Positions 1,259 to 37,164 of a stretch of DNA of 64,000 nucleotides are shown piece after piece (positions within the stretch are counted from its first letter, which is position 1; every line of letters starts with the position of its first letter). The notes under the pieces were generated by a model. It saw only the letters and a list, made by a program, of their open reading frames with translations, searched no databases and was not told the DNA's origin. The translations under genes were made by a program, and so were the position numbers. This DNA is from Arenicola marina (lineage: Eukaryota > Annelida > Polychaeta > Arenicolidae): NCBI GenBank assembly GCA_964019135.1, contig OZ025253.1:37312548-37376547 (forward strand), read 5' to 3'.

Positions 1259-1289
1259 TTATACGATTCGTAACGCGGCATTTACGATT

Positions 1290-2090: not shown

Positions 2091-2317
2091 ACAGTGGTTA
2101 GTGCGCAGTAAACGCAATATTAAGTGTCGACTAGAAGAAGGTGACGGGTACGTTTCTCCCTAACGCACCCGCTCACCCTGCGGCCTAGGTATTCTTCTCT
2201 AAATATGCTGTTCCTCTCTCAGCCTTGCCTTCCTCTACCCCATCATCGCTATCACAGGTTCCAAATATACATGATATCTACAACCCCCCCCCCGCCGATC
2301 TATGTCGCGAAATCGTT

Positions 2318-2692: not shown

Positions 2693-2726
2693 CATTATTA
2701 CTAAACTGGTTCATTGCAATTTTCAG

Positions 2727-4390: not shown

Positions 4391-5205
4391 CTTTTTGCCC
4401 GTATCAATAAATCGTCTACCATCCAGGGGGATAAAATCTAATTCCGCAAGTTGCTGAACTCCTTATATTCGCTGTGCATATCCAAGAAAAGGCAGAGGAC
4501 AGGGTCTTCCTCCCTCTCCTGCCACAAAGCAAGCATATGACAAGGACAATTAAAGACCCCAGACCCTCTGCCCCTCCACTCTTTTTTGACTTGACGATAA
4601 TATGTTATACGCAATGTTACGTTTGGACCCAGCCCTCATTTTTCTGCTACTTGACCACGCCGCTCCCTGTCGTCAGATTTTCGAACGGCAGTAGACCCCT
4701 CCTTGTTAAAAGCCTGAATACGCAGCTGCCCGCCCTCCCTACCCTCCGACTGTCACCCCTCATCAGCGCGCACTACTACCGATCATGAACCGATATCCAC
4801 CATAAATCCGCCACTCCACTATATACGTCCATTGAGCTAAACCGAGCTAAACATCCTTGTAATAAAACGAGCAGAATTCGGGTTTCTGCTTGTCGGAAAG
4901 AACGAGATTTAATATACTTAGAAATAATATATCGACAGGATGTCGGTTTACTCAGGGTTGGGGTAAGGAGGTTGTAGGAGTGAATGTGCTGGATGCGCAT
5001 TTGTACAGGGCGCGTGACGGGTGGGGGAAGCGAGGGGTCGTAAAAATGGAGAAAAGTTGGCGCTTTCACGAAACGAAACGAAAAACGGGACGAAAAAGGG
5101 AGGTCCGGACCAGCCAAACTTCCCCCGCCCCCCCTCCCCTTGTTTCATATGGCAAACCAAGGCGGACGGTCACAGAGAATTTTCCGCTGTGTGCGGTCTG
5201 AATTG
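4391..5205. other. Internal transposon sequence without recognised gene
   Basis: Matches 28470-29272 of copy B in inverse orientation. It contains short open frames with no family resemblance and ends at the deletion junction, where copy A passes directly into the 3' part of the cGAS-like gene. Nothing else supported. Confidence 0.6.
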
Positions 5206-5618
5206 AGGAGGGGGGGACACTGCCCCCCTCCACCCCGCCGTGGGGTAGGCTGTGGGGGTGCCACCCACACCCCAACGTAAGGTCCCCTCCATCGTCCTCA
5301 AGTACCTCGTCCTGAGGGACTTGGTGCGGGGAGAGGGTGGGAAGGGGGGGGGGCTGGGGGGGGGGGCTAGGTGGGTACCTGAGGAAGCTGGCGACTCACT
5401 TGGAGAGGGGGAGAGGTGTCCCCCACCCCCTGCTGAGTGGTGAGGGGGTGAGGGACATCCCTCGGCGGTCTGAGCGGGGCGCGTGGCTGACAAGTCACCC
5501 AGAGGATGCCATGATGCAGTCATGGCATCCTGTCTGGTACTTGCTTCCCGTCCCCTCCCTCACTGACTGTCACACGGAGATCTGCCGCCAGCTCTGTGAC
5601 GTCACACAGGTCACGTGA
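5206..5618 (+). pseudogene. 3' remnant of cGAS-like (Mab-21 family) gene in copy A
   Basis: Corresponds to the last ~135 codons of the intact gene at 24496-26234 in copy B. Readable pieces include KVPSIVLKYLVLRDLV and, in another frame after the G-run at ~5345-5365, SWHPVWYLLPVPSL and the same C-terminus CDVTQVT before TGA at 5616-5618. The nucleotidyltransferase core is gone because of the ~3.5 kb deletion whose junction lies at a G-rich microhomology near 5205; the G-tract adds a frameshift. It cannot encode the enzyme. Confidence 0.75.
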
Positions 5619-5705
5619 TCACTGACACACCTACCACGTCACGGGTGTCGTATCACGTGACCCCAACAGGTGACGTCACAAGATGGCGGCGGTTTGTTTA
5701 CATCC
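5590..5705. promoter_or_regulatory. Dense bZIP/E-box/YY1/Ets-type motif cluster
   Basis: Within ~110 bases are GTGACGTCAC (twice), CACGTG boxes (near 5612 and 5655), an AAGATGGCGGC YY1-type motif and an ACATCCGG Ets-type motif; a further AAAATGGCGCC lies at 5868. The cluster is conserved in copy B (24400-24520). It sits immediately after the cGAS-like stop codon, so it is either a promoter for a transcript toward the right TIR, an antisense promoter, or a 3' element. Motif reading only. Confidence 0.4.
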
Positions 5706-6591
5706 GGTGACTGGTGGGGGGGGGCGGTAGTTAGACGACGGGGAAAAAGGTGTAGGGGGGTAGACGGTAGGCTAGAGGGGGGTAGTTGGAAGGCGGGAGG
5801 GGGGGGAGGGGGGTGGAGGGTAAGTGGAGGGCTAGGGAGAAATTATTGGTATGCGACCTAAACAAAATGGCGCCCGTTTGTTTACATTTTTTCAAATATT
5901 CACTTTCCTTGCATGGCTCCAGGTCCGATTTTTTTTTTCCCCCTTTTTTTTTTTTTTTTTATCAGTCGCCACTTAGATGTACTCTCATGCTTTGATTGCG
6001 AGGCGGTGGGGGGGTGATCTTGCTAGCCTTCGACTGCATCCGACCGCTTTGACTGTCGACTGCCTGGTCCGGTTACTTCCAAAGTGATCTAAAATTTAAC
6101 TTTTGGTTTATTTTATTTTGTGATTATTATTTTATAAGCTTAATTGGTCCGCAATAAGAGCCATAAGCTCCGATATTTTTAAACCTCCTAGCCAGGTCAC
6201 AACCCTCTGAGGCGTTTGTTGTAGCAAATTACAACATCAGGATAACTCATTTATAAGATAATTATATTTGATGATGTATGCTTTCTTTTGAATGTTGTTG
6301 TATATAGTTGTTTATGGCACCCTCACGGGTCCCTGCCAAGTCGGCGGCGAGTTTAAGTTTGTAAATTTAGCCGGCTGGAAGGTTTTTAGCGGGTATCACA
6401 ATCTATGAGGGTTGATGTTCATATAATTATTATACTCGTGTGATTGTATGTGTATTGTATTATTGGTTCATTGGAATATCGTTCAATTGCATTATGAGTG
6501 AGATATTGTTCTATTCTCAATATGCTTAGCTTGTCTCGTAAACTAGCAAATTTAACTTGGAAATTTACTTCTGCGTAAGTTACTGTTTTAA
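5706..6591. other. Internal transposon sequence, G-tracts then AT-rich, no gene
   Basis: Begins with long G-runs (5716-5830), a poly-T tract (5932-5960), and continues as AT-rich sequence. It matches 23519-24400 in copy B inverted. No coding potential recognised. Confidence 0.6.
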
Positions 6592-7928
6592 CTTAAAGGG
6601 GGCAGGAAACGTTTTTACGAATTTTGCGTATGGCTGCTAAGACCCATAATGGTTTATTTGAGCCTGGTTAACAGCTTATGTTCCTCATACATTTCTGATA
6701 ATAAACAACACAAGCCGCGCGTAACTCGCACTGCGTATTCTGCCTCCGATACATTTTTTAGCGTGACGTCACGGGATGGAGACAAATAAATGCAGTTGGT
6801 GAAATCTACCGGCGCGGCATCTGGAACACACAAGGTCTGCTAGGATCGAAGATAGGCCAAGGCCTATTTCCTTTAAAGACAAAGTAATCTTGAGAATCCG
6901 CATGGCAGATGGATGCGGATAAAAAAAACATTGGTCAGGCACTTATTGCAGTGCTCCTGGCTGAACAAATTTCTAGCACAAGCCTAGGTCGAAATATTTG
7001 TATCGGTTCTAAACTGAGACGGTGGCTCCAGTCTAGCCCTGACGCATGGCCCTCACGACCTCAACCCTAACGGGGTGTAGCCCTGACGCATGGCCCTCAC
7101 GACCTCAACCCTAACGGGGTTCTGCCTATCGGCTTGTTGTCAGAAGGGTCAAGTTCACTGGGCTAGCTCCAGTTCAGGACTCGAGTACTTGAAGGCAGCG
7201 ACGCGACCCGCCCGTGAAGTCTTTCATTCCTTTATGAAGCGACCACTTCTCGCCAGATGACTACCAGAAAAGAGTTGTGACAGTTCAGGAACTTTTAAGT
7301 TTATCCAAAAAGGGGTAAACACAAGGATGCTGTAATCCCCATGAAAAGTTGATTTTTCTGCATACAAGGCAAGAAGAAATGATTGCCTCCCCAGAAGATA
7401 ATTTCAAATCAATGGAATCCTGTCTCTGTTTGTTTACCTCCTTACTACTAAAGTAGGAGATCTATGTTACAACATATATAAGGAAAAATGATTGCAAAAT
7501 ACTAATAAATATAAAGGTTACCATACATTATATATTTCATTTGGCGTACCCCATTTCCTTGACTTTCATTGACAATTGTACTGCAATATATATTTTTTTA
7601 CTGTGTCTCATTTATTTTTAGTGATAAATCTATGTGGCTAGACATATTCAGCATTTTATATAACAACATGTAGAACTACCAATTATATTCTTGATTTATT
7701 TAAATTTTAGTTTACTTTGTGTGTAAACAAATTATACAAATTGTTAAATTTTAATTATTTAATCCGATGTATAATCAGTAGTATAAATCACAATATGTAA
7801 AACTACCAATTATGACAACAGATATTAATTTAATTTTATTATAAATTGTTTAAATATATATTTTGGGCTAATAACAAATATTGTTTAAACTACTGTAATT
7901 TCCGGTGTATAAGTCGCACCTTTTTTTG
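6592..7928 (-). repeat. Right terminal inverted repeat of copy A
   Basis: Reverse complement of 1-1258 with scattered differences and the ~75 bases (7254-7340) that the left TIR lacks. It ends CCGGTGTATAAGTCGCACC followed by T7; the next bases again contain GGTGCGACTTATACACC in the other orientation (7938-7957), making a hairpin at the element edge. No gene. Confidence 0.85.
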
Positions 7929-8106
7929 TTGAGTCCGAGGGGTGCGACTTATACACCAGTGCAACTTATATATGATCTAAGTCTAAGCTTTTCTCTCGGG
8001 ACACCGCAGCCCCCCCCCCCCCCCTCCTAATCAACTTGACACCAGCCCTGAGATCTGAGCGATGCATCAACCACCTCTATAAACAATGCCTAAATGACTC
8101 GCCCGC
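7929..8106. repeat. Conserved flank of copy A (inverted at 20330-20490)
   Basis: Carries the second half of the GTGCGACTTATACACC hairpin, a C16-type tract at 8009-8026 and CTCGCCCGCTT. The reverse complement is at 20330-20490, so the palindrome runs unbroken from copy A into the inner arm. No gene. Confidence 0.7.
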
Positions 8107-9610
8107 TTGGAATTTTATTAATTATTTTATATATTTCTATATACTTTTTACTGGTATATACTGGTATGCATTCATTAACTATATTTATTTTTCCTGTAAT
8201 GCTAAAACAGTGAAATTTTGCAGTATACAGTAGTAGTTGAGAGGGGCCCAAACGAATGTAACTTTTTCCTGGGGCTAACGTTCTTGGGGGGTAACGCTTT
8301 TTGTGGGGGCGCATGCGCGCCGGTCTCCTATGGTCACCTGGCGCGTGAAGGTTTGTACTCCCGCCCCCCCCCCCTCCCCACCCTCCGGTCCCCAAATGTA
8401 TCTCCTATCCCCACCCACCCCTCCCGTAAACTACCCCTCCCCAAGCAAAACTCCTAACCCCCAAGACCCCCACCCCTGTTCACGCCCCCCCCCCTCATCC
8501 ACTGCCCCCCCCCGCCCTCCACTAGCTAGACCCCTTACTACACCCTCCCAACCATGATAGTGAACGGTATTTCACAATCACGCAGTGACGTCATGGATGT
8601 GTCATCGCGGGTTAACTGCAAGGACAATAGTTTCATAATTTGCTTGTCAAATCAGTCGCCCTCTCTCAGCCTCGATACCCCTTTCTCCCCCACCCTGCTA
8701 GTCCGACCGATATCCCTACACCTATAGCTGCCACGGGAGGAGCGGTTAGAGAAGACAATTAATACTTGACAGCTGCTTGCTTATGTTGTAAAGGTCAACC
8801 CATTCACCTTTCCGTCCGACGTATTAATTGCTTGCAGATGAAAAACTACCTGAGGAGGAGAGCATACAGGGGCTTATTAGTATTGAAATAACAGACTGAC
8901 TCATCAAACAACGGTCATTACTCTTTTCTCTCACAATAAGAGGGCGCCAACCCCTTGTTCCTCATCCACCGACCAACTCCTGACAATACTGCCCCCCCCC
9001 TCCCTCCGCGAAAGCCGATCCCCTCCTACCCTCACCCAACCATGACGGTGAACGGTATTCACAATCACGTAGTGCCGTTAAGATGTGTCATCGGCAGATA
9101 ACTGCAAGGACAGCAGTTATCTTGTAAAATTAGTCGCCCTCCCTCAGCCTCTTTTTCCCCCTCCCTCCTAGTCCGACCGTTTTTCCTACACCTCTTCCGC
9201 ATTCACCGCGTTCACCGCGTCCCCTCCCTATTTAGCATGTCGCCCCTCCGTTACTCCCACCTATGAGTGAGGGACGTACTCTAACCGCCCACCCGCCTCC
9301 CCCACGCCCGCACCCCAAGGACACCAATAGATCAATTTGAGAGGCTACCCAGACCAGTGGAGTCACCGAAGCGTGTCGCCACGGAAAGCCAGTACTAGTC
9401 ACCCCTGAGCGTGTTGAGCCTTGTCTCTTTTTTTGCGGGCTTGAAGGTGAGGGGAGGCGGATGGACATAATGGGGATGTGCGAAGTTCACCCCAGCTGGC
9501 TGTTCATCGGATTTCGAGATGGGGATGAGCGGACGATAATGTAAAAAACAATATTGAATTCAGTTCCCCGTTTTTGATTGAGAACATAAGGGCTGGCGTT
9601 TATAAGTTCT
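8107..9610. repeat. Unshared block in left arm with ~0.49 kb-spaced direct duplication
   Basis: Not represented in the right arm. 8107-8227 matches 38798-38908 in the same orientation. Two related segments, ~8551-8740 and ~9040-9210, share ACCATGA..GTGAACGGTAT, ACTGCAAGGACA and CTAGTCCGACCG, showing a diverged direct duplication. Pyrimidine-rich with C-runs. No gene recognised. Confidence 0.6.
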
Positions 9611-12600
9611 TCTCTGTGTAGTTGGTACTTTTAAATAGGAATCGGAATAGGAAGTGATAAGCTCGGTTTACTTATAACTAATAGATTTGTCGGGCATCAC
9701 GTACGTTGGATGATATATGGAGTTAGTCTGAAGATTACGATGAAGGGGCGTTTCGAAGGGATTGAGTGTTTAATCAGACTACTTTGAGGGTTTGTCGGAG
9801 ATTTATGTACCCATCAGTTTATACTCTATACTCTTTTACAAAGCACGCGGGCCGTTCTTAGATCACCATAATGCGAATGACGGGGTAACTGAAGTTTTTG
9901 CACACAGTGAGGGTGCTGTGTGATCGGTATCAGTCAGTATCATTTACTGACGGAACATTACTACCAAAGACAGCTAAAATGAGTCAGATCCCCACCACTG
10001 GTTTGTTCCGCTCCCTACATTGAGTTGGCTAGAGAGAATTAAGTTGCCATGTCTACCTTTCCATATCGTGTTGTCGTAAATGGCTAGGGGAACAGATGGT
10101 GAGAGACGCTTGGGGGAGGGTGGAGTGGTTATGCACGCATGTTCTATTTTTAGTGTTGAGGCGATGAGGAGAGGGTGGTTGATGGAGGGGGTTGGGCCGC
10201 GTATGCACTATTTTTAGAAACGACATAAATATTAAGAAATGAGGCGGGTGTGTGGAGGGGGGTTCCCCTTTCGGAGTTTAGATGCATTCTCTATTTTTAT
10301 AAATGATATCAGGGTAGGGAGGAATGAGGTGTTGTTACCTCTGTGCGTGGCAGTGCTATGATGGTTCAGGTTTATTGGTAACGTTTTATTTAATATGAAA
10401 CAGTTATGTGTAACATACGGCAATCATAATAGGATTTTTTTTAATGTTTCATTGAATTATGAATTAAATTTTGGGCAGCATTCGCATAACTAGAACAACA
10501 CAATGGTAAAAATATAGCATTATTATATAAGTTTGTGTATTAGATGCTTCACAGGCAATCAAGTTTATGTTCTATGTAGCATTCGGGGCAATACTTAGAC
10601 AATAGTGAAACGATTATGAAGTATTATGTAAGTTTTATGTTTCAAATGGCGTAAAGTAAAAGTTATGTGCAACATGTATGTAGCTCATTAGAAAATTGTG
10701 AAACATATAGGTAACATTTTGCATGTTTAGCCTTTCATATGGCATCAAATTTCTATTTTATGCCACATTCGGGGACTTAATAGACAACCGTCAAAAAATA
10801 CTTATGTATACTCTAAATTTCGATATTTAATGCAAGGAAGCTTAGGTTTATGTGGCAATATTAAAACGCGAATTGTTTCCAGAATGTTGAAGTTATGTAT
10901 CAACTTACAATGAGTTTACCAACGATTAAGAGAATAACGGGTTATAGCTGGCCTTGTTATAACTGTGTGGAGACAAAAGTGAAAAGAAATGGTATGATCA
11001 CAGGAATTAGGTCTCCATAATCAGTGACGTTGCAATCTCAGAGAGGATGCAGCGGACATACATGCGTTTTCTATTTTTGGACAATACCTTATGTTGAGAG
11101 GTGAGGAGTAGAGAGTTGGGTGGTTAGAGAATAGGTACTATGATAGAGAGAATAGGGGCGTGTGTGCACTATTTCTAGCAATGTCAATGTTAGGATATGA
11201 GGCGTGTGGGTGAGGGGATTCACCTTTCGGAGTGGAGATGCTTGCATGCTATATTTTTATAAATGATATCAAGTTAGGAAGGAATGAGGTGTTGCTACCT
11301 ATATGCGTGGTACTGCTATGGTTGAAGATAATAAGATATACTTATAATGTTTTATTTAATTTGAAAGATTTATGTTTAATACACGGCAATGATTTTAGGA
11401 ATAAATAAGTTTGTCTTTCATTGAATTATGAATTAAATGTTATGCAGCATTCGCATAAGTAGGATCAAACAATGGTAAAAATATGTAATTATTATATAAG
11501 TTTGTGTATTAGATGATTCATATGCAATCCAGTTTATGTTTTATGTACCAGTTAGGTCAATACTTAGACAAATGTGTAACAAATATGTAAGTATTCTGTA
11601 AGTTTTATGTTTCATATGTCTTAAAGTCTAAGTTATGTGCAACATTTATGTATCTCATTAGACAATTATGAAACATAGGTAGCATTCTACGTTTTGCCTT
11701 TCATATATCATCAAGCTTATATTTTATTCGGGTACTCAATAGACAACCGTGATAAAATACATATGTATACTATAGATTTCGGTATTCAATGTAAGGGAGC
11801 TCAGGTTTATGTAGAGTCTAGTAATAATAATGGAAAATGTTTCCGTGATATTGAATTTGTGTATCATCTAACGGTGATATTGAAGTTATGTATCATCTAG
11901 CGGTGATATTGAAGTTGTGTATCATCCAACGGTGAAATATGAAATAAAGTAATAATTTTGTATGTATTGCAAGTGAATATTAAATTTAAACCATGTTACA
12001 CTGAAATGTTTGGTGGAACATAGACATTTTGCAAAGCAAGGGATGTACATTTGGATTGCGCAGCAGTTTGCCAACGAACAAGACAATAACAGGATATAGG
12101 TGTCACTGTTATCATCTGGGATGAGACAAATGTGGAAAACGGTATGATCAGTGTAGTTAGGTTTGAATGATGAGTGAAGTTATTTATCAGAATACAGTGA
12201 ACGAAAGTAATGGCTTTTATGTATAGCTGTTGCACCGGCAGCGTCTCTAGCAGTAATGTAATGTGTATTTTTTTAAAGATCAAATGGGAAATACTTAGGC
12301 AATAAGATATAATTAACAAATCGAATACGAAAGTATTTTTCAGGTTTTATTTTTCATGTCATCAAGTAAATAGTTATGTGTTACATACGTGCAGCTCATT
12401 TGACAAATATGAAATGTATGAATAGCATTCTACATGTTTATCTTTTATATGTCATCAAGTTTACGTCACATTCGGGAAAGACAACCGTGAAAGAAAAATA
12501 TAAGTTTATGTATTCAGTGTTTCATATGTCATGTTTGCATATTTATGTAACACTCGTGGAACTGGTAATGATAATAGCAATGATAAAACGGATACATGGG

Positions 12601-13129
12601 TATATTGTACATTTCGGGACTCAATACCAGTAAGCTTGGGTTTATGTAGTGATGATGTAAAAGATTGTTTCAATTATGTGAAAGTTATGTATCAGAGTAC
12701 AATGAACTATGGAATAAAGTAACAACTTTTATGTATGACATTCAAGTAGATATTTTATGTGAACCATTCTGCACGTGTGTCACGATTGATGTATGACGTG
12801 TTTGGCGGAACATAGATCTTTTGCAAAGCAAGTGGTGTAAATTTGGATTGCACTGCAGTTACCAATTGTAAAAGAATAACCCGCTGTATAGGTGTCGTGG
12901 TTATAATATATGTTGGGACAAATGTGAAAAGAAACGGTATGATCAGTGTACGTAGGACGTAAAAATGAGTAACATGTTTAATGTAACATGTAGTCTTATG
13001 TTTTTTTTCGATCGTACATGGCAAGTAAGCGGTGCTTAATGTAACAATGATAGGTTTAGTAAAAGAACAATTCCATTAAGTTAAAGTTTTTGATCAACCT
13101 ACAACGAACAACGGAAGAAATGAAAAACT
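9611..13129 (+). repeat. Left inner arm of the giant palindrome; degenerate repeat units
   Basis: Reverse complement of 17520-20220. Relative to that arm it has ~0.7 kb extra (about 10312-11027). It is built from degenerate units: a block with TTTTGCAAAGCAAG..GTACATTTGGATTGC recurs near 12030 and 12815, diverged forms near 13560, 14450 and 17325, and a block with TAGACAATTATGAAACATAGG-like text recurs near 10690, 11660 and 12400. AT-rich, no credible gene; open frames mirror each other between arms only because of the inversion. Confidence 0.75.
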
Positions 13130-20539: not shown

Positions 20540-22142
20540 AAAACAATATTAAACAATTATACTCGGCGTACCAAGGTATGGTCTCAAATGTGGTATGTAA
20601 CGGCATTAAATCCGAAGACATACCTATCAGTAGGTCTGTGCGCCAGGGTTCTGTGTTAGGGCCTTGGTATTACATGCTATATATACACGAATTAGCAGTT
20701 GCGCTTGGTAGCTCTGTGTATGGCGCACGCATTGGTGACATAATATGCGGCGGCATACTCCAAGCTGACGACATTGCCGTATGTGCTCTAACGAATTCTG
20801 CCTTGCAGGCACTGGTAAGCGTCTGCGAAAACTACAGCCGAAGGTGGCAATTTAAATATAATCCAACCAAGTCGAAAGTAATGTTTTTTGATAGCAAATT
20901 ACGAAGAGTTAAAAAGGCAAATGCATGTCAGATTGCGCTATATAACGAGCGTGTGGAAGAAGTCCAGGTATACAACCATGTGGGAATTCACCTCGATGTC
21001 AATCTCTCCTCAACATGTGCGGTGGAGGAGGCGACTAAAAAGCTTAAGAGGGGCTTAATGAGCATCCTGTCAGTCAACACAAAGAATGCCGGCATGAGTT
21101 GTCTCACCGCTTTGAAACTGTATCGATGTATTGTCATTCCGCGGGCCCTCTATGGTGCTGAGTTTTGGAATCATCTGACACACAACCACCTAGCGAAACT
21201 TGAAGCGGCCCACAATGGCGCCATACGATGTATTCAAAATTTTCCAAAATGCTCCAGTGCGACCATTGCCCGCAGTATGGTTAACGAAATGTCTCTTGCG
21301 GAAGAAATTGATAAAAAGAAGCTAACAATTCTGGGCAGATTATGTCGGCTCAAAAATACCGCATTAGCGAAACGCATATTTGTGGAACGTCTCTATCAAT
21401 CCCAGGGCCCAGGGCCAAAGTTTGGGTATATTAGGGACATCATAGAGATCCTGAAGAAATATAATCTAGAAGGAATCGTTTTTAGGTTCATGGATAACAG
21501 CAACTTTCCTAGCAAAGGCGACTGGAAAAAGTTGGTGAGAACGGCTGTGCGGCGCTGGTCGGAACAACTGTTAACCACCAAATTGTCCCAACCAAAATAC
21601 AGACGCTTTGAAATGATTAGAGGGGGAGTTTTTGGCGTAAACGCCATATGGACCTTAGAACACCGTACGCGTGGTCGAAGGCAACACCTTCGTGACCTAG
21701 CTCGTTTGAACTGTGTCGTACACGACACCAAGACATATGCATGCACACACTGTGACCGTGCATATACGGATATTCTCAATCACCTTTTCCATCATTGCGT
21801 GGCGTACGGTGAGGCCCGTGAATACTTCTGGGCACTAATTGTAAATACATGTGAAGTGCCAATAAGCGCGTATCTATACAATCTTGAAGAGATCGAATTA
21901 ACTCGAGTAATGTTAGGCAAGCCTCCTGACATTGAAGCCACCCTAGAGCAGCTTAGCATTTTAACCCAAATATGTGCCAACGCTTGGCAAAGAATGTCAT
22001 ACGACAAAATGTAAAAATTTTACTGACGACCGTTTTTGTTTTTGTTTTTTTTGTTCTGTGTGTTTTTGTTATTTGTTCTGTTTTTTGACATGTTCTAATG
22101 CTCACCAGGAAGTGGTGGAATAAAGGAGATTCATTCATTCAT
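20540..22142 (+). mobile_element. 5'-truncated non-LTR retrotransposon (LINE)
   Basis: A 1,603-base insert between perfect 93-bp target duplications. It begins inside the RT domain, carries an open frame to 22014, a T-rich 3' UTR (22015-22080) and ends in ATTCATTCATTCATT, the short-repeat tail typical of several LINE clades. The truncated 5' end and tailed 3' end fit target-primed reverse transcription with widely spaced nicks. Orientation is plus. Confidence 0.9.
20541..22014 (+). CDS. LINE ORF2 fragment: reverse transcriptase and C-terminal zinc knuckle
   Basis: The frame is open from the 5' junction; the first ATG is at 20578, giving 478 residues, but the native start is lost. Counting from that ATG: a VRQGSVLGPW motif (residues 21-30, RT block equivalent to RQGxxLSP), the catalytic LQADDIAVCA (61-70, ADD in place of the common YADD), thumb-like sequence with LYGAEFW (~190-196), and a CX2CX9HX4C motif (Cys388, Cys391, His401, Cys406). 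The upstream endonuclease and first RT blocks are missing, so it cannot mobilise itself. The uninterrupted frame suggests a young insertion. The clade is uncertain: I/Jockey/Ingi-type ORF2 proteins have such a C-terminal CCHC. Confidence 0.85.
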
Positions 22143-22235
22143 TATAAGTTGCACTGGAGTATAAGTCGCACCCCTCGGACTCAACAAAAAAAGGTGCGAC
22201 TTTTACACCGGAAATTACAGTAGTTTAAACAATAT
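22143..22235 (+). repeat. 93-bp target site duplication, right copy
   Basis: Identical to 20447-20539, immediately after the ATTC-type tail of the LINE. Confidence 0.85.
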
Positions 22236-23518
22236 TTGTTATTAGCCCAAAATATATATTTAAACAAATTATAATAAAATTAAATTAATATCTGTTGTCA
22301 TAATTGGTAGTTTTACATATTGTGATTTATACTAGTGATTATTCATCAGATTAAACAATTTAAAGTTAACAATTTGTATAATTTGTTTACACACAAAGTC
22401 AACTAAAATTTAAATAAATCAAGAATATAATTGGTAGTTCTACATGTTGTTATATAAAATGCTGAATATGTCTAGCCACATAGATTTATCATTAAAAATA
22501 AATGAGACACAGTAAAAAAATATATATTGCAGTAAAATTGTCAATGAAAGTCAAGGAAATGGGGTACGCCAAATGAAATATATAATGTATGGTAATCTTT
22601 ATATTTATTAGTATTTTGCAATAATTTTTCCTTATATATGTTGTAATATAGATCTCCTTCTTTAGTAGTAAGGAGGTAAACAAACAGAGACAGGATTCCA
22701 TGGATTTGAAATTATCTTCTGGAGAGGCAATCATTTCTTCCTGCCTTGTATGCAGAAAAATCAACTTTTCGTGGGGATTACAGCATCTTTGTGTTTACCC
22801 CTTTTAGGAAAAACTTAACAGTTCCTGAACTGTCAAAACTCTTTTCTGGTAGTCATCTGGCGAGAAGTGGTCGCTTCATAAAGGAACGAAAGACTTCACG
22901 GGCGGGTCGCGTCGCTGCCAAGTACTCGAGTCCTGAACTGGAGCTAGCCCAGTGAACTTGACCCTTCTGACAACAAGCCGATAGGCAGAACCCCGTTAGG
23001 GTTGAGGTCGTGAGGGCCATGCGTCAGGGCTACACCCCGTTAGGGTTGAGGTCGTGAGGGCCATGCGTCAGGGCTAGACTGGAGCCACCGTCTCAGTTTA
23101 GAACCGATACAAATATTTCGACCTAGGCTTGTGCTAGAAATTTGTTCAGCCAGGAGCACTGCAATAAGTGCCTGACCAATGTTTTTTTTATCCGCATCCA
23201 TCTGCCATGCGGATTCTCAAGATTACTTTGTCTTTAAAGGAAATAGGCCTTGGCCTATCTTCGATCCTAGCAGACCTTGTGTGTACCAGATGCCGCGCCG
23301 GTAGATTTCACCAACTGCATTTATTTGTCTCCATCCCGTGACGTCACGCTAAAAAATGTATCGGAGGCAGAATACGCAGTGCGAGTTACGCGCGGCTTGT
23401 GTTGTTTATTATCAGAAATGTATGAGGAACATAAGCTGTTAACCAGGCTCAAATAAACCATTATGGGTCTTAGCAACCATACGCAAAATTCGTAAAAACG
23501 TTTCCTGCCCCCTTTAAG
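22185..23518 (+). repeat. Left TIR of copy B
   Basis: Inverse of 37165-38385 and of the copy A TIRs. Contains the double GTTAGGGTTGAGGTCGTGAGG duplication (22996-23080) and ends CGTTTCCTGCCCCCTTTAA. Its outer edge is inside the LINE target duplication. No gene. Confidence 0.85.
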
Positions 23519-24400
23519 TTAAACAGTAACTTACGCAGAAGTAAATTTCCAAGTTAAATTTGCTAGTTTACGAGACTAGGTAAGCATATTGAGAATAGAA
23601 CAATATCTCACTCATAATGCAATTGAACGATTGTCTAATGAACCAATAATACAATACACATACAATCACACGAGTATAATAATTATATGAACATCAACCC
23701 TCATAGATTGTGATACCCGCTAAAAACCTTCCAGCCGGCTAAATTTACAAACTTAAACTCGCCGCCGACTTGGCAAGGACCCGTGAGAGTGCCATAAACA
23801 ACTATATACAACAACATTCAATAGAAAGCATACATCATCAAATATACTTATCTTATAAATGAGTTATCCTGATGTGGTAATTTGCTACATGTAAAACAAA
23901 CGCCTCAGAGGGTTGTGACCTGGCTAGGAGGTTTAAAAATATCGGAGCTTATGGCTCTTATTGCGGACCAATTAAGCTTATAAAATAATAATCACAAAAT
24001 AAAATAAACCAAAAGTTAAATTTTAGATCACTTTGGAAGTAACCGGACCAGGCAGTCGACAGTCAAAGCGGTCAGAGTCAGTCGAAGGCTAGCGAGATCA
24101 CCCCCCCCCCCCACCCGCAATCAAAGCATGAGAGTACATCTAAGTGGCGACAGATAAAAAAATTAAAAAAAAAGGAAAAAAAAAAAAAAAAAATTGGACC
24201 TGGAGCCATGAAAGGAAATAAGTGAATATTTGAAAAAATGTAAACAAACGGGCGCCATTTTGTTTAGGTTGCATACCAATAATTTCTCCCTAGCCCTCCA
24301 CTTACCCTCCACCCCCCCACCCGCCTTCCAACTACCCCCCTCTAGCCTACCGTCTACCCCCCTACACCTTCTTCCCCGTCCTCTAACTACCCCCCCCCAC
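23519..24400. other. Internal transposon sequence, no gene
   Basis: Counterpart of 5706-6591 inverted: AT-rich, then an A-tract (24150-24195) and C-runs (24305-24400). Nothing coding. Confidence 0.6.
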
Positions 24401-24530
24401 CAGTCACCGGATGTAAACAAACCGCCGCCATCTTGTGACGTCACCTGTTGGGGTCACGTGATACGACACCCGTGACGTGGTAGGTATGTCAGTGATCACG
24501 TGACCTGTGTGACGTCACAGAGCTGGCGGC
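24400..24530. promoter_or_regulatory. CRE/E-box/YY1/Ets-type motif cluster, copy B
   Basis: Conserved counterpart of 5590-5705: CCGGATGT, GCCGCCATCTTG, two GTGACGTCAC-type sites and two CACGTG boxes within ~110 bases, immediately 3' of the cGAS-like stop codon. Retention in both copies, one with a dead gene, argues that it serves the element or an outward/antisense transcript. Confidence 0.4.
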
Positions 24531-26999
24531 AGACCTCCGTGTGACAATCAAAGAGGGAGGGGTCGGGAAGCAAGTACCAGACAGGATGCCATGACCGCAT
24601 CATGGCACCCTTTGGGTGATTTGTCAGCCACGCTCCCCGCTCAGACCGCGGAGGGATGTCCCTCACCCCCTCACCACTCAGCAGGGGGTGGGGGACACCT
24701 CTCCCCCTCTCCAAGTGTGTTGCCAGCTTCCTCAGGTACCCACCTAGCTCCCCCGGCCCCCCCCTCCCACCCCCTCTCCGCACCAAGTCCCTCAGGACGA
24801 GGTCCTTGATGACGATGGAGGGGACCTTAAGTTGGGGTGTGGGTGGCATCCCCACAGCCTCCCCCACGGCGGGGTGGAGGGGGGCAGTGTCCCTTTCAAT
24901 CAGCCACCGGGCCACACGGGTCAGGTGCTCACACAGGGCACACTCACCCTGACACCCCCCCGCCCCCCGCCGCGCCCAGTGCGCTGTGTGGGTGGCGGAC
25001 ACAACCAGCGCCACCCTACTAACGTAAACCCCCTCCCCAGCCTGATCCTTCCCCACCCCCTCCCTCCTCTCTGGCCGCCTCACCCTCACCCTCCCGGTCT
25101 TAAGCGACTTACTGACACACTCAGAGAGCCCCTCCACGTCCACCAGCCCCCCGATACACCCCCGGGACCCCCCAACCCCACCCCCCAGGGCCGCCAGGGT
25201 GTCCCTGGCCTCCCTCACCTCGCTCTCATCGAGGGGGAGCCACTCGAGGTAGTGCCGCGCGAGGAGCTTGAGGCCCCGGATGAGGGTGACGGGGGGTGAG
25301 CAGGGGCCGAGGGCGACCAGCGCGTGTGTCTCCATGACACACGTCGTCGGTAACCACTCACCCCCCGCCCCCCCCGCCGGCACTAGGTGGACGGGGTGTG
25401 ATGACCGCTCCAGCCCCGACATCCCCTCCAGGCGGCATATCACCTCCTGGGTGTCACCCGCCAGGATGTCCCGGGGGACAGGGAAGGCGGGGGTGAGGTC
25501 ACAGGTCAGCCGGTTCTCCCCCCGCCACACCAGAAACAGGGTGACAGTGGTCAGGCCGACCTTCACCCCGCTGTACCTGGGGGAGAGATGGCCACCGTGG
25601 TTCAGACCCTCGGGGAGCCTGACGGTGGGCAGCTCGGCATCCAGCTCGTCCACCCAGCGCAGGAGGAAGGTCACAGGGTCCACCTCACACTCCTCAACCC
25701 CCTCCACCACACGGGATTCACCTCTCAGGACATCCCTCCTCCCCTCCTCCCGACAGGCGGCCAGGGCCTCACCTCTTACCCACACCCTATACTTCACCCA
25801 CCTCCCCTCCCCCTCCTCCGCCTTCACCACCCTCACCCCCTCCCTCGCCACACTAACTAAAATGTCAAACTCGTTCGCCGTCGGTCTGACATCTGTTCCG
25901 TCGCCATGACTGCCGACCAGCGTGTCCCGGCGTCTGGCAAACAGGGGGTTCCTCCTACCCACCGCCTCAATCAGGTCACAAACAAACCTCTGGACGGCCT
26001 CTTTCCGGGCCACCGTGTCCGGGTGACCCCAGTCAAAGCACCCCCGCTCCAGGATGGCCGCCTCCTCCGTCAGGGTGCCGGAGGGTCGGCCCTCCACCCG
26101 TGACCTGGCGGTGAGGACCATGGCGGTCTGGGGGGCGTACTCCCCTGGCAGCTTCACCCGCCAGGTGAGGCTCTTGGTGGTCCTTGTGGTTGTTGGGGAG
26201 GTCTGGGGGGTCCTTGTGCTGGTTTGGAAGGCGCCTGCAGATGATGTTGACCTTAAAGGGGAAAAAAGTAACTGTATTTACACACTTGTCCATGAGAAAA
26301 AGAAAACATTCACAGCAATATTAGCTTCATCTACAAATTGTTATTGGTAAAGCGTGTCAGACACATCGTTCTATCAAATTAATTAGCAGCTTTGCCTCTG
26401 ACAAAATCTTCGTTTACTTATAATAATTGATATAAAGTTATCTATAATAATTTTTAAACCTTATTTAAAAATTTCCCCTTGCATAGAGATGTAGATCTAG
26501 GCTATTGTAGCTTATATAACTCTTCTTTGAAGTAGACATTCAGTAGATCTTAGTATGCTAGGCATAGCCATAGTCTAATTTCTTTATTTATTATGTCTTA
26601 TGGTTATAGGTTATATAGTCTACAACAATAGAGCAATAAATATCATGACAGGCTGACAATGACAATGTCAATGACAGGGTTAAACTGCCCAAACGTCATT
26701 GAACGCGACTGGTCAGCTGATAGAAGGGGGGAGAGAGAGGCTAATTAACCCCAAACCGTGATTAATCCAGGAGCCACATCGTCTCTCTCCTGAGAGGGAA
26801 TGGCAGATAAGGTTAGATGTGAGCTAGCTTTATTTCGCACCTGAAGTGGGAAGATACTTAATCCAATATGCCACATCATCTCCCTCCTGAGAGGGAATGG
26901 CTACACCGACCGACTGATAAAAACTCAACCTGCGAAGTGACGACGATCAGTAAACAAACTGTGCGGAGGGCGATCGGCGCGTGCGAATTCGAACGTCAT
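24496..26999 (-). CDS. cGAS-like / Mab-21-domain nucleotidyltransferase (cGLR)
   Basis: Two predicted exons: 26999-26930 (ATG at 26999, donor GCAG|GTTGAG) and 26234-24496 (acceptor after a pyrimidine tract, CTGCAG|GCG), phase-compatible, giving ~602 residues. Residues ~25-49 are a Thr/Ser/Pro-rich linker. The nucleotidyltransferase core has GSHGDGTDVRPTANEFDIL (131-149; acids Glu145 and Asp147) and CDLTPAFPVP (third acid Asp269), the Mab-21/cGAS pattern. A His/Cys cluster (His439, His442, Cys451, Cys455, Cys458) recalls but does not match the cGAS zinc loop. By family this would make nucleotide second messengers on sensing RNA/DNA; ligand and product are unknown. It is GC-rich, unlike its surroundings, and part of the transposon cargo. 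Exon 1 is the less certain part; an alternative is a start at the internal ATG near residue 62. Confidence 0.75.
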
Positions 27000-30937: not shown

Positions 30938-30956
30938 CTGAAAATTGCAATGAACC

Positions 30957-30964
30957 AGTTTAGT
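30957..30964 (+). repeat. 8-bp target site duplication AGTTTAGT, left
   Basis: AGTTTAGT here and at 35709-35716. Copy A (2695-2711, inverted) preserves the empty site with one AGTTTAGT between GAACC and AATAATGG, proving the duplication. Confidence 0.92.
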
Positions 30965-31317
30965 CACAGGCGCAGATCGCAGATGACACAGACCGTGGGG
31001 GGGGGGGGGTGTCGCGCACCGCCTACATAGAACAAGAAGGTATCCAACTCCAGCCCAAGCGCCTAGACAGGCACCCGCTTCAGACCCCAATACCTCACCT
31101 TTTTTTTCCGTGGGCAGGCTCTCAAATGGCGTATTTTGATCAATAAGGTAATAAGCTTGCTCGAACTCAAGTGAAAGATGACTGTCCTCCCTTCACCACG
31201 CCGTAATCAAGCATTTTCCCACAAATTTGAGCCGACACAGGCCGACTGTGAGACAAAATGGCGACTCACGCGAGGTTTCACGCGCATTTTCCTGCGAGAC
31301 CGCGCTGATTGGTCCTA
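30965..31317 (+). repeat. Left TIR of nested element
   Basis: Inverse of 35336-35708; includes CAAGAAGGTATCCAACTCC and AAAATGGCGACTCACGCGAG. Contains a G13-type tract at 30998-31010. Confidence 0.85.
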
Positions 31318-31478
31318 TTTGGGGGGGGGGGGTCACAGCTCATTCTGCGTCATACCGTGATCGCCACGTTATCTGTTATGGATTCTGCTTCTTTGCGAGG
31401 TGTATCCCCGCTACGTTTCTAACAAAGTGGCATCCCTAGCTCCATGGAACGAGCATATGACGCGCTGAAAGGGTTCAC

Positions 31479-31739
31479 GTGACGAATATCAGCTATCCTA
31501 TTGGACAATATCTTTCGGCTGCGATGAGAACAATGGAGCAGTATGCAACAGAGCTGGCGAAAAGCGGCCACAACTTATCTATTGGCGGCCGTGCCGGTAC
31601 AGGAAAGACAACATTATTGGTGCATTTAGGAAGGATAATAACTAAGCAAGGAAAGAAAGTGCCATCACTTGCTTCAACAGGCATAGAAACCCTTGGTTTG
31701 GAGCAAGCAGTTACCGTCCATTCGTGGTTCGGACTAAAG
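31479..31739 (+). pseudogene. Pif1-type helicase exon (motifs I and Ia)
   Basis: Reads a Walker A motif GGRAGTGKTTLL and the following block ASTGIETLGLEQAVTVHSWF, the Pif1/RecD-like pattern of P-loop, STGIAA and HSFFGL motifs. The exon ends CTAAAG|GTATGT, a good splice donor. A stop codon lies shortly upstream (about 31479), so the native start is lost. Pif1 helicases unwind DNA using ATP. The remaining motifs are missing or broken downstream, so the gene is dead. Confidence 0.7.
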
Positions 31740-32398
31740 GTATGTAATCAAACAAACAGGCGTGAAAGCCACATGGTCAGCTAAATTAATAGGATTGTTT
31801 TTATTTCCTCAGAATATACAGATTAAAGTTCTTTTAATTGAGACATTTTAATTTCTTTCTAATTATTATTTCATTTTTAAATCTCTAGCTAACTTAGATG
31901 TAAGCTTACAACTTTGTGGTGGCACACTATAAAAATTACTATAATCTTATAAAGTCAATATTTTTGTTTCTGCTTTTTACCAGCTCATATATTAAAGAAT
32001 GTGTCATTGAAAACCTAATCAAATTAATGTATAATGTATATTAAAGGAAATGTATGGCTTGATGCATTAATACATAGTCAGATTGAGAGTGTATAGTGAA
32101 TGCACACCTACAATTTTTATAAGCACAATCATGGCTATTTCACCAAATTACTCTTGAAATTAACTATTTTTAAAATGTACCTCTATATTTCTCATGCTGA
32201 CACATAGTTAACCTGCTTTCAATACACATTTTCAAGATCAAAGTCCCCTTCCCACCCTGACAATGGTTACGTATTGTAAAATTTAATAGCGACAATATAT
32301 CAATCATATGTATAATTTGATTTCACTGATGTCACTGAAGGTTTGTTTTCATGGCGCATATGTATGCCACTGTTAATGCTATTGTTCCTGACTTTTAG

Positions 32399-32566
32399 GT
32401 GAGGCACATTACCTCTGGCAGGCCCTTATACCAAGCATCCTGTGCCCGAAGGCCAATGTGATGGTAATCCACAAGGGGAATGGTAGTGGCATTTAGTGAG
32501 GATGTCATCAACGTGGAGTTGGACAATGGCAAACTAGTCGATGTCAAGCGGACTGTCATCACATAA
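32399..32566 (+). pseudogene. Pif1-type helicase C-terminal fragment
   Basis: Follows an acceptor TGACTTTTAG. One frame reads CPKANVMVIHKGNGSG, the next reads VVAFSEDVINVELDNGKL to a TAA at 32564-32566; together these resemble the Pif1 segment where VML-N-x-NGxxGxV precedes VxFxNG, split by a frameshift. A third possible piece (around 34985-35160) has LIYGACALGRVR-like text, reminiscent of Pif1 motif VI. The stretch 31740-32398 is intron-like. Confidence 0.5.
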
Positions 32567-35335
32567 CAACTAGATGGATTGATATTTGCCCGCTGGGGAG
32601 TAGTTTCCCCTCAAAGCAGCGTTTGGGATCACCTTTTCACCAGGTCCAAGGTAAGAATCTCACGAAGGAGATAAATGCAACACTTTGTGGTAATTCTTTT
32701 AGTAGTGAAAAATGAGAAACTACTGAAAAAAATGAAAGAAAAAAGTACTGCTGAAACACAAGTTTTCAATGATTTATTAATGTGTGTCATCAAAGCGGTA
32801 GAAAATGTGTACATAGCATTTATGTTTGGTCTGCAACATAAAAATTAAATGTAACCTGGGTAATTACTTCTTGGTATTTTAATGCCTAATAATCTATACA
32901 CGCATCAAGTAACCTGTCCTTCATGACTTTGGGTCCCGGCCTCTCTACTATAATGAGCATAATGTACAGGTTATGACCATTAGTATTGACCCTAGGTATA
33001 TGTGAAACGCCGACTCGCCGCCATTCACAGATACGTTGCATTTATCACATACAGGTCAGACGCTGGACCATTGCGCTGTAGCATTCAAGGCTGGTCAGAT
33101 ATAACATAGCTTGTGCGAATATCTCGATCAAGGGACATCCACTTGCGGCTGACGAGAAAGTGGTGTGCCTCGGTCACAGCTCTGATATTTCACTGCATGG
33201 GGAGAACAATTAAGCATCAGTATATGAGCATAATATGGGATGCAAGTACATTAGAGACAACATGTAAGCACCTGTTCTGATCATGGTAAGCAGCTTGTCA
33301 CCAAGTTTAAAAATATATCCCTTGTTCCTTTGTATGTAAACTGTCTTTCATGTCTAATTGTCAACCTGTTATCATTATTGGCTTGTTATACTAGCAGCTA
33401 GCCTTATGTCATAGAAAAAGAGCTGTGTTTGAAGCGAATGTATCCTCAAACTAGGATGGTTTAGTAGCACTGCAGATGCAGTTAACTGTGTACACACCAA
33501 TGGAGACACGAGACTCTATTATTCCTGACTTTATAGTGGCATGCCTTGGCTTCAGGAAATAGTTCAGTTATCAGCCGAAAATTTGTCTGCAAGAAATAAA
33601 AGGCAATATTAGTTTTTCACAACATGAAGAATCTGGTGTTAATTATCATAAATAATGCAAAGTAGGGCATTAGTGTTTACCTCGTCTTTCGTGATAGTCT
33701 AGTCTTTACCTTAATGAAACGCTTTTAAATCAACTTTGTGAGAGGCTAAGAAGGATAATTGCTGATAGAAGAGTAATGGAGAGGGTTGTGAATACATTGA
33801 AAGTTGATGCCTTCATGGCATTGAGAGGTGAAGCGAGAGGCATGACAGCTATGTATTTTATAGGGATGGTGTTTCTCTAGGCCCATTGCCAACAATATAG
33901 TTACATTGATACACTTACACTGGTGATGCTGTCATCATAGCTTTCACTGAATTTCTGCTGCCTTTATCCCAGGCCCAGATCCGGGTTCATTAATTGTTGG
34001 TAAGCCACCTGTTTCTGAATACAATGTACATATATGGTTAAACAATACAATTGTGTGAAAGAAGAAAGTTATGGATGAAAGTTATAAATTATAGGGACCA
34101 TAACATGCATAAGACCACCCAAACTTTCTTGTCAAAATAAACTATTTCATTTTTCAAAATCCTTTTTCAGATCTTAATTTTTTAACTTCAAGTTGACATA
34201 AAAATAAAAACCAGATACATAACATTCAGAGCATCAGGTGAATGCTGGTGGATAAGTTGTCCCAGCTCATGACGATCATTCCCCTCCCCCCCCCCCCCCA
34301 CCCCCCATTCACTGTCAATGAACCCTCCTAGGGGCATATCTTTTTCAGATCTTAAAAATGAATAGAAAATATCAAAAACACTAAATGTAAAAAAATTGGT
34401 ATGTCAAAATAATTATTAAATGTGTAATATTGAGGTAAAGTGTGAGATGTTCTCCAGAGAAAAATGTGATGTATACGTTGAGCGTAATAATTTAAAATGT
34501 GGCAAAGTAAATGTAACATGTATGCCATTGCCTGGAAATAATAGATACAAAAATGTGGGAGAGAGATATTTTGGAGGAGAGCAAAAATATGGGTTGTGAT
34601 AAAAATAAATATAGCTTAGAATTATAACATTTGGATCAACACATATGAGATGTCACAATAATATAGTACTTAAGTGTTATAAGTCTAATAAGGGATGCAA
34701 ACGATGTGAGACGTCAAATAAGTGTATCATATTTATGACTGTTAAACAATGGATATAAAATATATTATATAAAAAGATATAGATCTATCCCAATTTTTTC
34801 TTATTAAAAACCTCATATTAAACACTTACTTAAATATCATATAAGAACGTAATCAGTTACTGCTTGCTGTACTACATAACCTGGCCTTTCAATCAGGCAC
34901 ACACATCTACTCTATTAATTTAGCAGACCAGCCCTGCACCCCCCCCCCCCCAACCTCCACACACACCACACACTGATACAGGCCCTCTTTCCTCCCCAGA
35001 CATTGGTTGTCCAAATGAGGAGAGGCAAGAGGTCTCAGGCAGGGCACGCCTACCCCACCGACTTGTGTTGATTTACGGCGCCTGTGCACTGGGACGGGTC
35101 AGATGACGGTGACAGATGTGACCCCCCTCAAAGAGGCCATCGTCAAAGCAATATTTTTTACCCCTTAAACATAACCGCACGCAGCGATACGAAGCTGTTA
35201 GACCTTTATTAGGGCTAAACATGTCAGAAAAAATGAAAATACATACCAATAAATGTAATGGTCCTTCGCGCTACGGCGTTATTCTAGAAAATCCGCGCGA
35301 TGGGCGATTAATCTGTCATCAAATTTGCGTAAGTC
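32567..35335. other. AT-rich interior of nested element
   Basis: No complete gene. A C-run lies at 34286-34299 and another at 34939-34951. A weak Pif1 trace at 34985-35160 is noted with the helicase fragment. Otherwise nothing supported. Confidence 0.5.
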
Positions 35336-35708
35336 GGTGCCAGCGACAGCGGACCAATCAGCGCGGTCTCGCAGGAAAATGCGCGTGAAACCTCGCGTGA
35401 GTCGCCATTTTGTCTCACAGTCGGCCTGTGTCGGCTCAAATTTGTGGGACAATGCTTGATTACGGCGTGGTGAAGGGAGGACAGTCATCTTTCACTTGAG
35501 TTCGAGCAAGCTTATTACCTTATTGATCAAAATACGCCATTTGAGAGCCTGCCCACGGACAAAAAAGGTGAGGTATTGGGGTCTGAAGCGGGTGCCTGTC
35601 TAGGCGCTTGGGCTGGAGTTGGATACCTTCTTGTTCTATGTAGGCGGTGCGCGACCCCCCCCCCCTCCCCCCCGCGCGGCCTGTGTCAGTCGATCTGCGG
35701 CGCCTGTG
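35336..35708 (-). repeat. Right TIR of nested element
   Basis: Inverse of 30965-31317, ending GGCGCCTGTG at 35708, followed by the AGTTTAGT duplication (35709-35716). Confidence 0.85.
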
Positions 35709-35734
35709 AGTTTAGTAATAATGGGCGAATATAC

Positions 35735-36110
35735 AGACACCCATCGCGACCAGCGGCCGGTCACCCATCGCGACCAGCGGTCAGTCACCCATCGCGACCA
35801 GCGGCCAGTCACCCATCGCGACCAGCGGCCGGTCACCCATCGCGACCAGCGGCCAGTCACCCATCGCGACCAGCGGCCGGTCACCCATCGCGACCAGCGG
35901 CCGGTCACCCATCGCGACCAGCGGCCAGTCACCCATGGCGACCAGCGGCCAGTCACCCATCGCGACCAGCGGCCAGTCACCCATGGCGACCAGCGGCCAG
36001 TCACCCATCGCGACCAGCGGCCGGTCACCCATCGCGACCAGCGGCCAGTCACCCATCGCGACCAGCGGCCAGTCACCAATCGCGACCAGCGGCCGGTCAA
36101 CGATTTCGCG
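35735..36110 (-). repeat. 24-bp minisatellite inside copy B
   Basis: About 15 units of the inverse of the copy-A array (GACCAGCGGCCAGTCACCCATCGC circularly). Unit variants differ in order between A and B, showing turnover since duplication. Open frames through it are by-products. Confidence 0.9.
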
Positions 36111-36299
36111 ACATAGATAGGCGGGGGGGGGGGGTTGTAGATATCATGTATATTTGGAACCTGTGATAGCGATGATGGGGTAGAGGAAGGCAAGGCTGAG
36201 AGAGGAAGAGCATATTTAGAGAAGAATACCTAGGCCGCAGGGTGAGCGGGCGCGTTAGGGAGAAACGTACCCGTCACCTTCTTCTAGTCGACACTTAAT

Positions 36300-37116: not shown

Positions 37117-37164
37117 GTAGGCTTCGTCAGTCATAAGCGTAAATGCCGCGTTACGAATCGTATA

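What the first reader, a model, noticed from the sequence alone, without database searches (positions are those of the whole stretch)
24496..26999. Apparently intact cGAS-like gene carried inside a long-TIR transposon
The GS...EFD core and the later CDLTP acid place it in the Mab-21/cGAS family; it lies between matching TIRs together with the element's other cargo. A mobile vehicle would offer a route for the expansion of cGAS-like receptors seen in invertebrates.
Basis: partly seen in the sequence, partly recalled or inferred. Interest (0 to 1): 0.9.

Follow-up and report, generated by a model that had tools for sequence, protein, structure and literature searches.

The report
Truncated member of hypervariable cGAS-like family
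The gene is one copy, missing its usual first exon, of a family of at least about 130 immune-sensor-like genes in this animal genome, whose catalytic core is conserved while the tail evolves very fast and whose usual first exon predicts a membrane anchor.

Summary
The ORF and its GS..EFD..CDLTP motifs are real, and inverted repeats flank it. Three claims built on that do not hold. (1) Not intact: relatives begin translation in a small upstream exon, mostly MG-start (predicted N-myristoylation), with a phase-2 donor; none was found here, so the copy looks 5'-truncated. (2) The flanking repeats (T) are ends of a common dispersed repeat that abuts the gene at TTAA on both sides, inside a larger palindrome. 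The 35 other T places scored lie at least 219 kb from any listed family copy; T is in none of the loci fetched around 29 other copies. (3) The family match is weak: no Pfam or PDB hit; only the GS..EFD region beats decoys against this genome's Mab-21 proteins.

What is unusual is the family: 133 matches of a 30-nt signature, mostly on two chromosomes. The catalytic motif is conserved (omega about 0.5), the C-terminal tail strongly diversifying (about 5); in 7 of 9 close pairs the coding exon has diverged more than both flanks. Best reading: a membrane-anchored, rapidly diversifying cGAS-like sensor family, spread as DNA but not as cargo of this TIR element. Function is inferred; nothing was tested at the bench.

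The parts
24496..26251 (-). Main coding exon of a cGAS/Mab-21-like nucleotidyltransferase family member, stop codon included; exon starts at 26251 after the conserved acceptor AG
   Evidence: open frame; acceptor conserved in 26 of 30 copies; only open frame of six in 30 of 30 copies
25864..25914 (-). Catalytic-type motif GSHGDGTDVRPTANEFD
   Evidence: E-F-D plus third D complete in 28 of 30 copies
5216..5618 (+). 3' remnant of a second copy in the left palindrome arm; its 5' part and upstream region are deleted (approximate end)
   Evidence: 5214-7975 matches 22139-24893 inverted, 95.8%
22139..23524 (+). Repeat T (downstream side of the gene); its inner edge TTAAAGGGGGCAGG abuts the gene segment at TTAA
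37160..38385 (-). Repeat T, inverted copy (upstream side of the gene), also abutting the gene segment at TTAA
23513..37171 (-). Gene segment collinear with locus L008 (C3:58.91 Mb), apart from the nested transposon, from just downstream of L008's first exon to about 1 kb past the stop codon
28495..30964 (-). Segment shared with the region upstream of three other copies (L037, L042, L044)
30965..35708 (.). Nested 4.7-kb DNA transposon: about 350-bp TIRs (CACAGGCGC...), 8-bp target duplication AGTTTAGT, PIF1-helicase fragment at 31461-31781
   Evidence: empty site in the left arm
35734..36112 (.). 24-bp minisatellite that lies upstream of the main exon in the relatives too
1..1264 (+). Repeat T of the left arm (begins at -80, outside the window)
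6589..8009 (-). Repeat T of the left arm, inverted copy
1..13129 (+). Left arm of the large palindrome (begins at -2883)
   Evidence: outer end at TTAA
17520..41188 (-). Right arm of the large palindrome, containing the gene
   Evidence: outer end at TTAA

Best explanation
The ORF is the main exon of one copy of a family of probably 130 or more divergent cGAS/Mab-21-like nucleotidyltransferases. A standard member has a tiny first coding exon that in most copies read encodes an MG[A/G]xx[S/T]K.. start (predicted N-myristoylation; in 7 of 19 with a Cys at position 4), a long intron with minisatellites, and one large exon. I propose that the protein sits on a membrane, that the fast-evolving C-terminal tail contacts a rapidly changing partner (pathogen ligand or antagonist), and that the conserved catalytic core makes a nucleotide signal. 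The family spread by DNA-level copying of a roughly 10-kb unit, mostly along chromosomes C6 and C3. The window copy appears to have lost its first exon and promoter and is bracketed by ends of an unrelated TTAA-flanked repeat, so it is probably not expressed as a standard member. Shown here: copy number, gene structure by comparison, the break in this copy, the selection pattern, and a weak link to Mab-21. Inferred: lipid anchor, enzymatic activity, immune role.
For: Copies: 133 matches of a 30-nt signature at up to 3 mismatches, 0 for the reversed control; 74 places in the protein search (74 of 676 candidates scored), 65 of them on C6 and C3, 4 of 74 with in-frame stops. First exon: of 40 exon-1 places (40 of 152 candidates scored), 26 have a copy downstream on the same strand within 16 kb, 0 only in another arrangement, 14 have none in the listed sets. 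19 of 20 fetched exon-1 places are open from ATG to a phase-2 donor, 16 of the 19 starting MG; 15 of the 19 fit the myristoylation consensus, which was written from recall. The phase matches the conserved acceptor. Truncation: window and L008 are collinear only over 23513-37171; L008's ATG exon lies just beyond; no exon 1 found. Selection: GS..EFD omega about 0.47, CDLTP 0.58, C-tail 4.93 (401 N to 31 S changes over 59 codons). Coding exon more diverged than both flanks in 7 of 9 close pairs, e.g. 6.5% against 1.7% and 1.1%. Fourfold sites 0.6% against 54% at sites chosen as variable, L005-L008. Mab-21 link. H-x8-C-x3-C-x2-C in 29 of 30.
Against: No relevant Pfam family for any of 30 members (two unrelated weak hits, E 0.05 and 0.2), no PDB match, no hit among the 7989 candidates scored in each of two searches of 5.8 billion proteins. 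The link to Mab-21 has an hhalign probability of only 19.5%, and 4.0% with a larger Mab-21 set. The C-terminal half does not beat decoys (13 of 60 score as high). The single-sequence model is useless (mean pLDDT 32.8). The strict published cGLR motif matches 0 of 30. Whole-gene ML omega is 0.91, not above 1; counting gives 1.5 and NG86 a median of 1.27. Per codon only 11 of 338 tested show replacement excess at p<0.01, 18 silent excess. Two of nine close pairs have a flank more diverged than the coding exon, which hints at gene conversion. 4 of 25 first exons read start MDAH, not MG: L062, L063 and L072 of the 20 fetched, and the c20 locus. No expression data. The 30 aligned copies are the best-scoring ones, so intactness is biased.
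Confidence: 0.55

Rival explanations
1. One reading: a long-TIR transposon carries the gene as cargo and has driven the family's expansion.
For: Inverted T repeats flank the gene segment exactly at TTAA on both sides; the outer ends of the whole palindrome are also TTAA-type ends.
Against: The 35 other T places (40 of 712 candidates scored) lie at least 219 kb from any of 100 listed signature places (of 133). T is in none of 41 stretches around 29 other copies. Family copies cluster on two chromosomes (65 of 74; 91 of 100), while the 35 T places lie on 14 contigs.
Confidence: 0.04
2. Local composite transposon: this one copy was moved by two flanking TTAA-type elements as a composite (up to about 44 kb, -2883 to 41188) and then or before duplicated in inverted orientation.
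For: Beyond each T the sequence is not the gene's own flank, so simple insertions of T into a gene unit do not explain it. TTAA at the inner edges and at both outer ends. Uninterrupted TTAA at the same two places in L008.
Against: No empty site was found (the joined-flank search did not complete), and the outer arm and inner arm were never searched genome-wide (requests unanswered). No target duplication at the outer ends of T in the left copy. The palindrome could equally be an inverted duplication or a haplotype misjoin.
Confidence: 0.22
3. The family is not an immune sensor but a recognition protein of another arms race (gamete or self recognition, selfish-element conflict) on an NTase-like scaffold, catalytically active or not.
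For: The diversifying selection pattern fits any recognition system; 2 of 30 copies lack the complete acid triad; no ligand is known.
Against: The catalytic motif is the most constrained region of those compared (omega 0.47) and the triad is complete in 28 of 30, which argues for retained catalysis.
Confidence: 0.2
4. Hypervariable codons arise by targeted mutagenesis (diversity-generating retroelement-like), not selection.
For: Several codon columns vary freely at positions 1 and 2 with position 3 nearly fixed; sites chosen as variable differ at 54% where fourfold sites differ at 0.6% (L005-L008).
Against: In variable codons third-position replacements are only about 2.4-fold below expectation (10 against 24.2 at kappa 2); conserved A's lie among the variable sites. 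No template search was run. Strong selection suffices.
Confidence: 0.03

Closest known systems
Animal cGAS-like receptors (cGLRs), incl. expansions of >200 genes in some bivalves (PMC9980059, passages seen)
   Same: GS, E-h-D and third acid; very large lineage-specific expansion; intracellular enzyme-type sensor expected
   Different: V (or I) instead of Q/T before GS; acid spacing 115-133 instead of 50-90; no PF03281 score; an N-terminal lipidation-type exon; extreme tail diversification
Mab-21 family proteins of the same genome (PF03281 hits; e.g. L046)
   Same: VGS..EFD and a long distance to the third acid (about 133 in L046, counted by eye); DPxF...VGS helix region aligns
   Different: family not recognised by PF03281; C-terminal half not alignable above chance
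OAS2 (N-myristoylated antiviral NTase; PMC13372824, passages seen)
   Same: NTase-type sensor with a myristoylation start; there a G2A change removes antiviral activity
   Different: different superfamily branch, single locus, and no comparable hypervariable tail known to me (recall)
TTAA-specific DNA transposons (Kolobok or piggyBac type; recalled, not tested)
   Same: T and the palindrome ends begin at TTAA and have related termini
   Different: no transposase identified; superfamily not assigned by any search

Membership tests
cGLR (criteria of PMC9980059) | h[QT]GS X8-20 [DE]h[DE]h X50-90 h[DE]h active-site motif | tested here: not met
   strict motif 0 of 30; EFD and third D complete in 28 of 30, but V or I for Q/T and spacing 115-133. 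L046, a PF03281 hit of this genome, departs in the same two ways (read by eye)
cGLR (criteria of PMC9980059) | homology across the NTase core and the C-terminal helix bundle | tested here: inconclusive
   core beats decoys (hhalign probability 19.5%); C-terminal half does not (13 of 60 decoys as high)
cGLR (criteria of PMC9980059) | predicted structural homology | tested here: inconclusive
cGLR superfamily (definition in PMC10732462, passages seen) | PF03281 Mab-21 domain | tested here: not met
   0 of 30 members at E<=10; none of the 23 PF03281 places of the genome coincides with a place (compared by eye)
Transposon cargo gene | other copies of the element carry the gene, or other copies of the gene carry the element | tested here: not met
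   0 of 35 off-window T places scored; T in 0 of 41 stretches around 29 other copies; the unscored candidates remain untested
Transposon cargo gene | target-site duplication around the carrying unit | tested here: inconclusive
   TTAA at inner and outer edges; outer ends of T in the left copy have no matching flanks
N-myristoylated protein | MG-{EDRKHPFYW}-x-x-[STAGCN]-{P} start (consensus recalled) | tested here: met
   15 of 19 readable first exons among 20 fetched, and by eye those of the L005, L008 and L002 loci; not met for MDAH-start exons (L062, L063, L072, c20 locus) and MGNNLP (L069); no exon found for the window copy
Diversifying gene family | replacement rate above the neutral rate | tested here: met
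   C-tail omega about 4.9, 401 N to 31 S; ML omega of codons 501-689 is 1.98; whole-gene ML is 0.91, so met for the tail only

The most novel reading that the evidence does not exclude
An animal has evolved an open-ended repertoire of well over a hundred membrane-anchored (N-myristoylated, partly also palmitoylated) cGAS-like enzymes in which a conserved catalytic core is coupled to a hypervariable C-terminal recognition tail, a germline-encoded counterpart of a variable receptor family built on a nucleotide-second-messenger enzyme.
Probability: 0.3. Interest if true: 0.85.

Novelty: new variant of a known kind. Interest (0 to 1): 0.6.

Why it matters
Large cGLR expansions have been reported (PMC9980059) but what drives them is, to my knowledge, open. 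This family shows where selection acts (tail, not catalytic site), predicts where the proteins sit in the cell (membrane, by a tiny first exon), and scores nothing with PF03281, so surveys based on that profile would miss it. It also argues against one attractive explanation, spread as TIR-transposon cargo, for this case. In the listings of six searches I saw no report of a myristoylated cGLR or of this selection pattern. Those cover open-access papers only; I saw passages of three papers (PMC9980059, PMC13372824, PMC10732462) and opened none of the others, including two of the three that hold both 'cGAS-like receptor' and 'myristoyl'.

Tried and rejected
Targeted mutagenesis (DGR-like) was taken seriously after and dropped. 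Viral contigs and phage records: no relatives. Single-sequence structure: useless, so no fold search was run. C-terminal Mab-21 comparison: negative. Ancestral reconstruction in IQ-TREE failed twice and was replaced by parsimony. Never answered because the server was busy, so not tested: STING (PF15009) in this genome, the outer and inner palindrome arms genome-wide, and the empty site of the palindrome.

Rows dropped before counts: 10 of 84 rows, 35 of 75 and 6 of 46 as further pieces of the same place; the 88 rows were reduced to 35 off-window places plus those in the window. The tool lists 100 of the 133 signature places, so distances use those 100. The 41 stretches are 29 copies with 1.5 kb on each side plus 12 longer flank stretches around 6 of them.

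Full report
What is there. The window is C6:37312548-37376547 of an unnamed 867-Mb genome. The ORF is real: 593 codons, minus strand, stop at 24496-24498, and it is the one frame open in 30 of 30 family members compared. It carries LVGSHGDGTDVRPTANEFDIL and LTCDLTPA.

Family size. A protein search scored 74 of 676 candidates and gave 84 rows, which I reduced to 74 places: 50 on C6, 15 on C3, 9 elsewhere. Four of the 74 have in-frame stops and several others are split into pieces. A 30-nt signature of the GSHGDGTDVR region, at up to 3 mismatches, has 133 matches against 0 for the reversed control; it counts signatures, not intact genes. On the 100 listed places the median gap is 245 kb on C6 and 478 kb on C3, so this is dispersal, not one tight tandem array.

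What moves with the gene. Copies share noncoding DNA on both sides, and the region upstream of the main exon is kept, so copying was at DNA level and not by retroposition of a spliced message. Two recent copies, L005 and L008, share about 10.5 kb, with minisatellites at both ends. The window's inverted repeats are not part of this unit: of 41 stretches around 29 other copies, 0 hold T or the palindrome's outer or inner arms, while 39 match the unit. Those stretches reach past the downstream break point in all 29 copies but far enough upstream in only 6.

Gene model. The acceptor TTTAAG|GTCAACATC is shared: an exact TCAACATC sits at that place in 26 of 30 copies, 25 with a preceding G and 1 (L027) with an A; it needs a phase-2 exon before it. 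Upstream in L005 and L008 lies an ATG exon (MGGKSSREETVTEPR and MGGKSSREPR) with a phase-2 donor (L008 read by eye), and in the L002 locus two related exons (MGARLTKRSRP.., MGGCLTRYRP..). A genome search with the L002 exon region (40 of 152 candidates scored) gave 40 places. 26 have a family copy downstream on the same strand within 16 kb, none has a copy only in another arrangement, and 14 have none among the listed copies. I fetched 20 of these places: 19 read from ATG to a phase-2 donor, 1 (L054) does not. 16 of the 19 start MG and 15 fit the N-myristoylation consensus as I recall it. Those that do not start MG read MDAH.. (L062, L063, L072; also the c20 locus).

The window copy looks truncated. 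It is collinear with L008 only from 23513 to 37171, the nested transposon apart. L008's exon 1 lies just beyond that point. No match to the common exon-1 pattern exists in the 64 kb at up to 3 mismatches, and neither exon type was found from 20 kb left to 10 kb right of the window; an unrelated or more distant first exon is not excluded. Both break points abut inverted copies of repeat T at a TTAA, and L008 has an uninterrupted TTAA at the same two places. T is common: 712 candidates, of which 40 were scored; 35 off-window places on 14 contigs, the nearest listed signature place being 219 kb away. The whole block is inverted-duplicated; the palindrome runs from -2883 to 41188 and ends at TTAA on both sides. 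A separate 4.7-kb transposon with 8-bp target duplication and a PIF1-helicase fragment sits at 30965-35708, upstream of the main exon.

Identity. No Pfam family of relevance, no PDB match, and no match among the 7989 candidates scored in each of two large protein searches. Against Mab-21 proteins of the same genome the profile comparison aligns the helix and GS..EFD region, with P 0.0012 but a probability of only 19.5%. 11 of 30 members exceed the highest reported of 3000 shuffles (8.9 at best against 3.0; 856 shuffles were reported by the program), and the profile score of 34.9 exceeds all 100 column-shuffled decoys. A larger but poorly aligned Mab-21 set scored lower (28.5, probability 4.0%). 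The C-terminal half is not significant, although the best alignment puts CDLTPAF on the LDFSPIMAL strand and WLPTT on WFLSF. So 'cGAS/Mab-21-like NTase' is likely; 'member of the cGLR family' is not established.

Selection. By parsimony on 553 codons there are 2335 replacement and 662 silent changes, omega about 1.5; by region GS..EFD is 0.47, CDLTP 0.58 and the C-tail 4.93. Of 338 codons tested, 11 show replacement excess and 18 silent excess at p<0.01. ML under a one-ratio model gives 0.91 overall, 0.44 to 0.74 in the three other regions and 1.98 for codons 501-689; NG86 gives a median of 1.27 over 435 pairs. In close pairs the coding exon is more diverged than both flanks in 7 of 9. L016-L024 and one flank of L018-L029 go the other way, which suggests exchange between copies. 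The nearly fixed third bases in hypervariable codons looked like targeted mutation, but third-position replacements are only moderately short (10 against about 24 expected).

How it probably works. Inferred: an N-terminal lipid holds the enzyme at a membrane, as shown for OAS2 (PMC13372824, passages); the variable tail meets a changing partner; the conserved acids make a nucleotide signal. Large cGLR expansions, above 200 genes in some bivalves, are already reported (PMC9980059, passages). The lipid-type first exon, the tail selection and the divergence beyond PF03281 are what this adds.

Verdict. The vehicle hypothesis fails its own test in the sample, and the copy does not look intact. The family it belongs to is the finding.

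Noticed in passing
window 30965-35708: 4.7-kb DNA transposon with about 350-bp TIRs, 8-bp target duplication AGTTTAGT and a PIF1-like helicase fragment (PF05970, E=5e-10); empty site preserved in the left palindrome arm.
   Followed up: partly
L032:2-3073 (left of the window): Long open Pao/BEL-type retrotransposon frame (Peptidase_A17, E=3e-42).
   Followed up: no
window 20542-22014: Reverse-transcriptase fragment (RVT_1, E=3.5e-9) without a counterpart in the left palindrome arm.
   Followed up: no
window 56400-57600 and 60300-62150; L031, L033: Long minisatellite arrays of about 25 bp (one frame reads ..TGQPALSPYWSACTLPVLVSLHSPR..), with related repeats beside some gene copies.
   Followed up: no
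C3:57.6-58.9 Mb: Several gene copies on C3 are spaced by 265-269 kb (58001177-58267460, 58376119-58641579, 58641579-58910787), which hints at large segmental duplications.
   Followed up: no
L048 (C1:31367050): A PF03281-positive Mab-21 domain inside an open frame reported as 2011 aa, a possible multidomain Mab-21 protein.
   Followed up: no
L021, L030: Two otherwise open copies with a broken acid triad (GFN with SRL, and CNL), candidates for catalytically dead members.
   Followed up: no
window coordinates -110 to -81 and 8060 to 8230: A stretch like AGCGGGCGAGTCANTTAGGCATTGNTTAT lies next to T on one side of the left copy and some 75 bp out on the other, so T may extend beyond the ends given here.
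   Followed up: no
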